A stretch of DNA of 64,000 nucleotides. It comes from Actinopolyspora alba. GTDB lineage: Bacteria > Actinomycetota > Actinomycetes > Mycobacteriales > Pseudonocardiaceae. How positions within the stretch are numbered: position 1 is the first letter of the stretch; the number at the start of each line of letters is the position of its first letter. A model generated the notes under the pieces. It had not been told where the DNA came from. It did not search any database and saw only the letters and a program-made list of their open reading frames with translations. Position numbers and translations under genes: made by a program. The stretch is from contig NZ_FOMZ01000009.1 in the NCBI RefSeq assembly GCF_900112765.1, positions 62,001 through 126,000 of the forward strand, given 5' to 3'. Positions 6,284 through 60,521 of this stretch are shown piece by piece.

Positions 6284-6927
6284 TCGAACGAATCCTGCCG
6301 GAAGCGGCCGCTTCCTCCGAGGTCTTCGGCGACGACCCCCACGCGCGACTGTTGCCGGCGGAGGAGCAGTACGTCGCCAGGGCGGTGGAGAAGCGCAGAC
6401 GCGAGTTCACCCTCGCCCGGAGCTGCGCTCGGCGCGCGCTCGGCGAACTCGGTCACCCCGACTTCGCGGTGCACAGTGGCGAGCGGCGCGAACCGTTGTG
6501 GCCGCGGGGCGTGGTCGGCAGCATCACGCACTGCGAGGGCTACTGTGCCGCCGCCGTGGCACCGGCCACCGAGGTGTGCTCGTTGGGCATCGACGCGGAG
6601 ACCGACGAGGTGCTGCCCGATGGCGTGCTCGGGCAGGTCACCGTGGAGCGGGAACGCGAGTTGCTGGCCGGGTTGCCCGCCGGGGCCAACTGGGACCGGT
6701 TGCTGTTCAGCGCGAAGGAGAGCGTCTACAAGGCGTGGTTCCCGTTGACCGGCCGCTGGCTCGGCTTCGAGGACGCCTTCGTGCGGATCGATCCCTCGGG
6801 GGAGTTCAGCGCCGAGCTGATCGAAGCACCCGCACCGAGCTCGGCGGGTGAGCTCACCGGCTTCTCCGGCCGGTTCCGCTTCGAATCCGGCCTGGTGATC
6901 ACCGCCGTCACCGTCTTCCCCGGCTGA
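6280..6927 (+). CDS. 4'-phosphopantetheinyl transferase (EntD/Sfp superfamily)
   Basis: 215 aa from GTG 6280, which overlaps the upstream stop. Transfers the phosphopantetheine arm of CoA to a serine of acyl- or peptidyl-carrier proteins. Family signatures are clear: an N-terminal RxxFTLARSCAR segment, a basic substrate loop, the metal motif LGIDAETD (about residues 104-111) and the FSAKESVYKAW motif (about 146-156). The enzyme probably serves polyketide, non-ribosomal peptide or fatty acid-type carriers encoded elsewhere, since none is in this window. The length is typical of the group annotated with EntD. Confidence 0.93.
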   Translation: MIERILPEAAASSEVFGDDPHARLLPAEEQYVARAVEKRRREFTLARSCARRALGELGHPDFAVHSGERREPLWPRGVVGSITHCEGYCAAAVAPATEVCSLGIDAETDEVLPDGVLGQVTVERERELLAGLPAGANWDRLLFSAKESVYKAWFPLTGRWLGFEDAFVRIDPSGEFSAELIEAPAPSSAGELTGFSGRFRFESGLVITAVTVFPG

Positions 6928-6935
6928 TCCGTCGG

Positions 6936-6958
6936 CGTCGATTTCTCGCGAAATCGCC
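6936..6958 (-). repeat. GNRA-hairpin repeat, copy 1
   Basis: Read on the minus strand it carries the shared 18-nt core GGCGATTTCGCGAGAAAT. The arms CGATTTC and GAAATCG pair perfectly over 7 bp and close a GCGA tetraloop. Three further copies occur at 22788-22810, 59140-59163 and 59192-59214. It lies just downstream of the phosphopantetheinyl transferase gene. Confidence 0.8.
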
Positions 6959-22787: not shown

Positions 22788-22810
22788 CGTAAATTTCTCG
22801 CGAAATCGCC
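22788..22810 (-). repeat. GNRA-hairpin repeat, copy 2
   Basis: On the minus strand the core GGCGATTTCGCGAGAAAT is identical to the other copies; the last arm position is mismatched (TTT instead of TCG/TTG). It lies between the ATP-grasp gene and the GbsR-like regulator. Confidence 0.8.
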
Positions 22811-59139: not shown

Positions 59140-59163
59140 GGCGATTTCGCGAGAAATTGACGC
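59140..59163 (+). repeat. GNRA-hairpin repeat, copy 3
   Basis: Core GGCGATTTCGCGAGAAAT followed by TGACG. Arms CGATTTC and GAAATTG close the GCGA tetraloop with one G-U pair. It is tandem with copy 4, 52 bp apart, between the kinase-like gene and mshC. Confidence 0.85.
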
Positions 59164-59191
59164 CGACCCTGCCGCACCGCCGTACTGGCGC

Positions 59192-59214
59192 GGCGATTTC
59201 GCGAGAAATTGACG
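59192..59214 (+). repeat. GNRA-hairpin repeat, copy 4
   Basis: Identical core to copy 3 with the same flanking GGCGATTT and TTGACG. It lies 59 bp before the mshC -10 hexamer. Confidence 0.85.
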
Positions 59215-59285: not shown

Positions 59286-60521
59286 ATGCAACCCTGGTCA
59301 TCGGTTTCCGTGCCCAGCCTGCCCGGTACTGCGCATCCGTTGCGACTGTTCGATACTGCCACCGGCGAAGTGAGACCGGTCGGTACCGGTTCTGGGGTGC
59401 GGATGTACGTCTGCGGCATCACTCCCTACGATGCGACCCATCTCGGTCACGCCGCCACATACATCGCCTACGACCTGGTGCACCGCATCTGGTTGGACAA
59501 CGGCAGTGATGTGCACTACGTGCAGAACGTCACGGACATCGACGATCCGCTGCTGGAGCGTGCCACGCACGACAACGAGGACTGGATCGTGCTCGGGATG
59601 CGCGAGACCGCGCTGTTCCGCGAGGACATGGCCGCCCTGCGCGTACTGCCACCGCGGGACTTCGTCGGAGCGGTGGAGTCGATCCCGGAGATCGAGCAAG
59701 CCGTGACCAAACTGCTTTCCTCCGGTGCGGCCTACCGGGTCGACGACGAGTTCCCGGACGTCTACTTCCGGCACGACGCCACCGGCAGGCTCGGGTACGA
59801 GTCCCGTTACAGCGGAGCCGAGATGACAGAGGTGTTCCCGGACCGGGGTGGCGATCCGGACCGCCCGGGCAAGGAGCACCCGCTCGACGCTCTGCTGTGG
59901 CGCATGGCTCGCCCGGACGAACCCTCCTGGGACTCCGAGCTCGGTGCGGGTCGTCCCGGCTGGCACCTGGAGTGCTCGGTGATCGCGCTGAACAGGCTCG
60001 GGATCGGGTTCGACCTGCAGGGCGGCGGCTCGGACCTGGCCTTTCCGCACCACGAGTTCAGCGCCGCGCACGCGGAAGCGCTGACCGGACAACACCCCTT
60101 CGCGGGCCACTACTCGCACGCCGGGATGGTGGGACTGGACGGGCAGAAGATGTCCAAGTCCAAGGGCAACCTCGTGTTCGTCTCCCGGCTGCGTGGCGAT
60201 CGAGTGGATCCGATGGCCATCAGGTTGGCGTTGTTGAGCGGTCACTACCGTGCCGATCGTTCGTGGAACGCCGATCTGCTCACCACCGGCGCTGCCAGGC
60301 TTTCCCGCTGGAAGCAGGCGGTGGGGCTGTCGGAGGGGCCCGCCGCCGACTCGACTCTCGACCGGTTGCGGGAACGGCTCAGCGACGACCTCGACACCGA
60401 AGGGGCGCTGCGAGCCGTGGACGCCTGGGTCGACGAGGCGCTGTACGAGGGGGGCGAGGACACGACCGCGCCCTCGACGATTCGCCGTGCGGTGGACGCC
60501 CTGCTGGGCGTGGCCCTGTAA
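59286..60521 (+). CDS. mshC: Mycothiol ligase MshC
   Basis: 411 aa from ATG 59286, fixed by the -10 hexamer 7 nt upstream and the usual [14 protein letters not shown] start. Joins cysteine to glucosaminyl-inositol using ATP, the third step of mycothiol synthesis. Class I tRNA synthetase-like: [25 protein letters not shown] with zinc Cys and HIGH-type HLGHA (about residues 40-64), WHLECSVIA, and [10 protein letters not shown] (about 287-296). Marks the organism as a mycothiol producer. Confidence 0.97.

What the first reader, a model, noticed from the sequence alone, without database searches (positions are those of the whole stretch)
59140..59214. Four-copy noncoding repeat that folds into a GNRA-tetraloop hairpin
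The 18-mer GGCGATTTCGCGAGAAAT occurs four times, always between genes: 6936-6958 and 22788-22810 on the minus strand, 59140-59163 and 59192-59214 on the plus strand, the last two in tandem. The arms CGATTTC / GAAAT(C,T)G pair over 7 bp around a GCGA loop. Variation at the base of the stem (CG, UG) keeps pairing in three copies. Only one strand gives a GNRA loop, so orientation is meaningful. This looks like a genome-wide RNA or DNA element, perhaps a transcript processing site, terminator module or protein site.
Basis: partly seen in the sequence, partly recalled or inferred. Interest (0 to 1): 0.7.

Follow-up and report, generated by a model that had tools for sequence, protein, structure and literature searches.

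The report
Intergenic palindrome repeat of Actinopolyspora
A short mirror-like DNA sequence is repeated a few hundred times between genes in some salt-loving soil bacteria; mainly its two five-letter arms are protected from change, which looks more like a docking site for a protein than like the RNA hairpin first proposed.

Summary
The four copies are real and not chance. They belong to a REP-like repeat of the genus inferred to be Actinopolyspora: CGATTTCNCGNGAAAT hits 242 forward/246 reverse places in this genome, control 0. Of nine congeners, three have 156-208 hits per strand, two 25-28, one 1 and three 0; 1 of 51 other-genus genomes has one place. In 0.79 Mb of two genomes, 0 of 118 cores overlap predicted genes. 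G009 clusters are enriched between convergent genes (35 of 71; 11.9 expected) and avoid divergent ones (4; 17.4 expected).

The GNRA-hairpin reading is not supported. Between two genomes the ATTTC/GAAAT arms changed at 10 of 430 positions, the "loop" at 27 of 172, flanks at 10-13%. There is no outer-stem covariation and no significant strand-specific wobble (18 v 12). Arm spacing is fixed (145 of 146). This fits a double-stranded palindrome read by a dimer, in the parS/Noc-site frame. A sister clade has GTTTCGCGCGAAAC instead. No Noc paralogue was found; the ligand is unknown. Pointing with transcription (28 v 11) keeps an RNA role open.

The parts
6936..6958 (-). copy 1: GGCGATTTCGCGAGAAATCGACG; core palindrome ATTTCGCGAGAAAT at 6941-6954; just after the stop of a PPTase gene ending at 6927
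22788..22810 (-). copy 2: GGCGATTTCGCGAGAAATTTACG; flanking genes uncertain (no Pfam match)
59140..59163 (+). copy 3, first of a direct doublet; 52 bp to copy 4
59192..59214 (+). copy 4, second of the doublet, upstream of the ligase gene at 59286; present in G009, G005 and (varied) G004, absent from G003, G008 and the four more distant congeners in the alignment

Best explanation
It is a REP-like interspersed palindromic repeat of part of one genus. Shown: the unit that resists change is ATTTC-N4-GAAAT with rigid spacing, set in asymmetric, partly shared flanks (GCGGCG...YGACGC), at gene 3' ends, often in doublets 52-54 or 73-75 bp apart; its centre and flanks drift. Inferred: the palindrome works as double-stranded DNA bound by a two-fold symmetric (dimeric) protein that reads the two ATTTC half-sites and tolerates a variable, pyrimidine-purine centre; 3'-intergenic places are kept because sites there disturb neither promoters nor coding; copies spread by duplication or conversion of intergenic modules, with no dedicated transposase seen. 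The protein is not identified; a ParB-type protein is the most specific candidate that I can name.
For: 43 G009 cores in alignments to G000: arms 10 of 430 positions changed, centre 27 of 172, outer arms 72 of 516, flanks 10-13%. Exact arms with gap 4: 145, with any other gap of 0-12: 1. Centre pyrimidine-purine in 274 of 276 copies, a class that is the same on both strands. No outer-arm covariation and no significant strand bias of wobbles, 18 v 12, so pairing as such is not what is kept. 0 of 118 cores in genes; convergent enrichment, divergent avoidance. Frame shared with parS and NBS (consensus sites in PMC7383237). Sister clade with GTTTCGCGCGAAAC, often in doublets 42-43 bp apart. Copy number does not follow Y1 transposases.
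Against: The centre is asymmetric in most copies (GCGA 205 of 276) and the element points with tandem genes (28 v 11), which a symmetric DNA site does not need. Gene conversion between copies could also keep arms alike. Copies are few in G003 and G008 and absent from three congeners, so any function is dispensable in the genus. No binding protein was identified.
Confidence: 0.45

Rival explanations
1. RNA hairpin in 3' untranslated regions: the transcribed copy folds and stops transcription or blocks 3'-exonucleases, as proposed for REPs.
For: 3' placement; orientation with tandem genes 28 v 11 in G009, 32 v 8 in a two-genome count; the hairpin folds in silico; 4 of 20 double arm changes restore pairing; REPs in PMC3733652 sit mainly between unidirectional and convergent genes.
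Against: Centre free to leave GNRA; no significant strand bias of wobbles; no outer-stem covariation; ordinary folding energy; no T-run; stem sequence kept rather than pairing.
Confidence: 0.27
2. Selfish or decaying repeat with no host function: similarity of arms reflects recent copying or conversion.
For: Shared flanks and neighbours (beside family B in 30 of 71 G009 clusters), variable copy number among congeners, mosaic intergenic regions, centre types switching between orthologues.
Against: Arms change several-fold less than the bases next to them at the same orthologous sites; conversion would have to spare only the arms. No transposase tied to copies.
Confidence: 0.2
3. Special case of the best explanation: the sites are bound by the cell's single ParB, as dispersed parS-like sites.
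For: CG-centred copies differ from parS at positions 1 and 6 only. Caulobacter ParB variant RTKG bound several sites varied at just these positions (PMC7383237 section 11); Actinopolyspora ParB has R at 184. Residue 179 is M only in the four high-copy genomes, T in the other six (position from the alignment). Depletion toward ter in G009.
Against: R173 and G201 are kept; parS-specific variants had an invariable R173 and 17 amino acids were tolerated at 179; the 179 change is one clade event. Canonical parS sites are unchanged: 5 in nine genomes, 3 in G007, all beside parB. A at position 6, as in parS, occurs in 3 of 552 half-sites. Family B, unrelated to parS, is also missing from the ter block.
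Confidence: 0.12

Closest known systems
REP elements, CGTC-tagged group (Di Nocera et al. 2013, PMC3733652; abstract, passages and section 15 seen)
   Same: Short palindrome, tens to hundreds of copies, intergenic, between convergent and unidirectional genes, downstream of coding regions, 4-base loop (family 1), no dedicated transposase, CGTC at one end in 107 of 168 copies here.
   Different: Stem of 7 bp without the AT start described; dimers here are mostly direct (37 of 51), while head-to-head was described as predominant and head-to-tail as negligible. The paper lists CGTC repeats in five phyla, Actinobacteria not among them.
REPs mobilised by RAYT (GTAG group)
   Same: Extragenic palindromes in high copy with a 3' bias.
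   Different: No GTAG in the consensus; Y1 transposases do not follow copy number.
Noc-binding sites (NBS) of Firmicutes (PMC7383237; passages and section 11 seen)
   Same: ATTTC-NCGN-GAAAT frame, many sites over the chromosome, few near ter in G009.
   Different: No second ParB/Noc protein in 10 of 10 genomes; position 6 mostly G or T, not C; sites lie in repeats at gene 3' ends.
parS
   Same: TTTC-NCGN-GAAA core, palindrome, same spacing.
   Different: A at position 1 and almost never A at position 6; canonical parS are five (three in G007) beside parB.

Membership tests
REP (general) | 20-40 bp palindrome in high copy | tested here: met
   242/246 hits in G000; imperfect palindrome of about 26 bp
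REP (general) | extragenic, mainly convergent or unidirectional contexts | tested here: met
   0 of 118 in genes; 1 of 48 in another block; 35 convergent, 32 tandem, 4 divergent clusters; gene finder of my own
CGTC-tagged REP | CGTC (or TGTC, CCTC) unpaired at one end | tested here: inconclusive
   CGTC at one end in 43 of 66 and 64 of 102 copies, at the other end in 8 and 8; its last C can pair with the G-arm, and it is not clearly more conserved than flanks
CGTC-tagged REP | stem of 8-9 bp starting with AT, head-to-head dimers | tested here: not met
   7-bp stem; 37 of 51 doublets direct; description
RAYT-mobilised REP | copies flanking a Y1 transposase gene | tested here: not met
   G008 has about 26 copies and no Y1 match, G006 seven Y1 matches and one copy; of 20 Y1 loci scanned 4 hold a copy; in three of these it lies in a gene 3' position, the fourth (L109) was not examined
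Noc/NBS system | a Noc protein (ParB paralogue) | tested here: not met
   one ParB_N and one HTH_ParB match per genome in 10 of 10
Noc/NBS system | sites avoid the terminus | tested here: inconclusive
   G009 yes, G003 not significant (p 0.12); repeat family B shows the same gap in the ter block
parS | bound by ParB | not testable with these tools
   needs binding or ChIP data
GNRA-tetraloop RNA element | GNRA loop kept, stem kept by compensatory change | tested here: not met
   69 of 276 non-GNRA; centre changes as fast as flanks; no outer covariation; 18 v 12 wobbles
Intrinsic terminator | hairpin followed by a T-run | tested here: not met
   none found in the three window regions; terminators without a T-run are not excluded
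Rfam families | match at gathering score | tested here: not met
   0 matches in the window

The most novel reading that the evidence does not exclude
Actinopolyspora carries a genome-wide network of ParB/Noc-type palindromes, thinned out toward ter, spread as intergenic repeats, with sister clades using different site variants (ATTTCNCGNGAAAT in one, GTTTCGCGCGAAAC in the other). It is read by ParB itself or by an unrecognised dimeric factor, and would be a Noc-like chromosome-wide system in an actinomycete without Noc.
Probability: 0.13. Interest if true: 0.85.

Novelty: new variant of a known kind. Interest (0 to 1): 0.5.

Why it matters
Whether REP-like palindromes act as RNA hairpins, protein sites or selfish DNA is an old argument. 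Here the comparison of orthologous copies separates the parts: the two 5-bp arms are constrained, the loop is not. That makes a specific DNA-binding ligand testable with one pulldown. If the ligand were ParB-like, it would show how dispersed centromere-type sites can arise from repeats.

Tried and rejected
Noc paralogue: not found, one ParB per genome. IS200/IS605 end or RAYT product: no link with copy number; three copies near Y1 genes lie at gene 3' ends. Uptake-signal-like half-sites: few outside the palindrome (GGCGATTTC 38 near cores v 1 elsewhere in the G009 block, 44 v 2 in G000). Replication-polarised motif: 83 of 121 strict copies run with replication in G009 (this assumes that the 21 copies that one search did not list lie past the last listed one). 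Gene direction explains it: convergent sites show 22 v 19, and tandem genes on the lagging strand still have the element with the gene, 5 v 1. Long outer hairpin: a few long palindromes, no general covariation. Wobble: one stem pair looked strand-biased (104 v 14), but that may be one inherited variant; the count over the arms gave 18 v 12. Same places in the sister clade? Of four G006 clusters, one mapped with both flanks to G009, G000 and G003, and no copy is there. Insertion boundaries could not be fixed because intergenic regions are mosaics of several repeats. Helical phasing of doublets: 15 of 22 and 18 of 29 near whole turns, but shared descent can give that. Literature: Actinopolyspora with repeat and palindromic listed 4 papers, none on this by listing; REP with actinobacteria and RAYT listed 0; RepRanger 2025 (PMC12306157) does not name Actinopolyspora in its main text (passages). 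I do not claim that the repeat is unpublished.

Full report
OBSERVATION. Rfam has nothing in the window.

SCALE. CGATTTCNCGNGAAAT gives 242 forward and 246 reverse hits in the window's genome (a near-palindromic copy can hit both strands); the reversed control gives 0. Of 61 genomes searched, 8 have hits: 7 of 10 in the genus and 1 of 51 elsewhere, there a single place. Forward counts in the genus: G000 242, G009 208, G005 202, G004 162, G003 28, G008 26, G006 1, and 0 in G001, G002 and G007. The looser TTTCNYRNGAAA gives G000 437, G009 336, G005 326, G004 279, G003 65, G008 57, G001 53, G006 46, G002 39, G007 11, with controls of 0 to 2; these include parS and the sister-clade motif.

PLACE. 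I fetched 400-kb blocks of G009 (beside dnaA, left replichore, ter side), of G003 and of G006, and one 392-kb G000 contig. Genes came from a codon-usage finder of my own, not from an annotation. In the G009 dnaA-side block and the G000 contig, 0 of 118 cores (up to 1 mismatch in the arms) overlap a predicted gene; a few of the 118 are chance matches by their flanks. With up to 6 mismatches to the 26-base consensus, 1 of 48 copies in G009's left block does. For G009, 71 intergenic clusters (one in a gene left out) fall 35 convergent, 32 tandem and 4 divergent, against 11.9, 41.7 and 17.4 expected by intergenic length (p 2e-10 for convergent, 4e-5 for divergent). In tandem contexts the oriented element (up to 4 mismatches) runs with the genes in 28 and against in 11 (p 0.009); a count over G009 and G000 together, which share many sites, gave 32 v 8, with 18 symmetric ones left out. 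Convergent sites show no replication bias (22 v 19).

ANATOMY. The consensus is GCGGCG-ATTTC-GCGA-GAAAT-YGACGC over 276 distinct copies from several genomes. They were chosen for being within 6 mismatches of that consensus, so conservation in that set is partly my selection. Doublets lie mostly 52-54 or 73-75 bp apart and are direct in 37 of 51.

WHAT IS CONSERVED. At 43 G009 cores lying inside alignments to G000 (at least one a chance match), ATTTC changed at 2 of 215 positions, GAAAT at 8 of 215, the four central bases at 27 of 172, the six-base outer arms at 42 and 30 of 258, and more distant flanks at 10-13%. No gap fell within the 14 bases. Cores were chosen in G009 only. Exact arms occur with a gap of 4 in 145 cases and with any other gap of 0-12 in 1, over four blocks. 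The central pair is pyrimidine-purine in 274 of 276.

HAIRPIN TESTS. Outer arms pair (Watson-Crick) no better within a copy than between copies in any of six distance classes in either genome (153 to 901 of 1000 permutations reach the observed value). Over five genome sets (342 sites; orthologues not merged between sets), single arm transitions that keep a wobble on the element strand number 18 and on the other strand 12; double changes were paired in 4 of 20. Folding energies are ordinary. No terminators with T-runs were found at the window sites. So the loop is not what is kept and pairing is not specifically protected, although a hairpin can form and the 3' position and orientation leave an RNA role open.

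DNA-SITE READING. The core has the parS/NBS frame: the consensus parS TGTTTCACGTGAAACA and NBS TATTTCCCGGGAAATA differ at positions 1 and 6 (passages of PMC7383237). CG-centred copies differ from parS just there. Three congeners (G001, G002, G006) have GTTTCGCGCGAAAC 33, 23 and 25 times, the other seven genomes 0. In the G006 block its five exact sites are intergenic by my finder, two pairs of them 43 bp apart, and a third site has a one-mismatch partner at 43 bp. Against this: one ParB per genome; canonical parS sites number 5 in nine genomes and 3 in G007, beside parB; ParB keeps R173 and G201. Residue 179 is M in exactly the four high-copy genomes (position from the alignment to 6t1f), but 17 amino acids were tolerated there for parS binding, so this is a lead and no more.

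CHROMOSOME DISTRIBUTION. G009 has 2 copies in 0.8-1.2 Mb against 52 and 48 in its other two blocks. A 20-kb piece of that block is shared in parts at 95-98% with G000 and G005, so the gap is not simply new DNA (one piece tested). By fifths from ori to ter the clusters number 32, 34, 15, 11 and 2 in G009 (100 of 121 strict copies listed), 5, 8, 5, 2 and 0 for the sister motif in G006, and 7, 13, 3, 7 and 2 in G003 (p 3e-8, 0.004 and 0.12 for the last two fifths). Repeat family B is equally missing from the G009 ter block (0 v 26 and 25), so the gap is not specific to this palindrome.

ORIGIN. Copies share flanks and neighbours: in G009, 30 of 71 clusters lie within 150 bp of family B, with B's tail toward the copy in 29. 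Y1 transposases do not follow copy number. In three-way alignments some G003 orthologues show core-like remnants and others none, so loss and gain both look likely.

COMPARISON. Among known kinds it is closest to REPs, and within these to the CGTC-tagged group, which also lacks a transposase and sits downstream of genes (PMC3733652: abstract, passages, section 15). It misses that group's described stem and dimer form, so I file it as REP-like and not as a CGTC-REP.

Noticed in passing
G000, G009, G003 and G006 blocks (L131-L190, L201-L240): A second repeat, family B (about 100-bp long hairpin plus tail, with ACATCGGGTAGCGACCTACACAACGTC), 22-26 loci per 400-kb block in G000, G009 and G003, also found in G006, none in G009's ter block; its tail faces this palindrome when they are neighbours.
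   Followed up: partly
same blocks, e.g. g0 offsets 254900-255060: A third repeat, family C (about 95-bp hairpin, GTGCGTGAGTCGG...CCGACTCACG), 4-12 hits per block (not merged over strands), 1 in G009's ter block; a fragment may lie upstream of copy 3 in the window.
   Followed up: partly
G001, G002, G006 genomes: GTTTCGCGCGAAAC palindromes, 33, 23 and 25 per genome, often in doublets 42-43 bp apart; 0 in the other seven genomes.
   Followed up: partly
parB loci L191-L200: The position of Caulobacter ParB T179 is M in G000, G004, G005 and G009 and T in the other six.
   Followed up: partly
G009:C1 about 2857800-2862200 (L234-L235): CRISPR-like array: GTGCTCTCCACGGGCGTGGAGGTGGACCG repeated every 61 bp (17 hairpin hits).
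   Followed up: no
G009:C1 800001-1200000 (L241-L260): The ter-side block has lower GC (0.658 v 0.679) and normal coding density but almost none of families A and B.
   Followed up: partly
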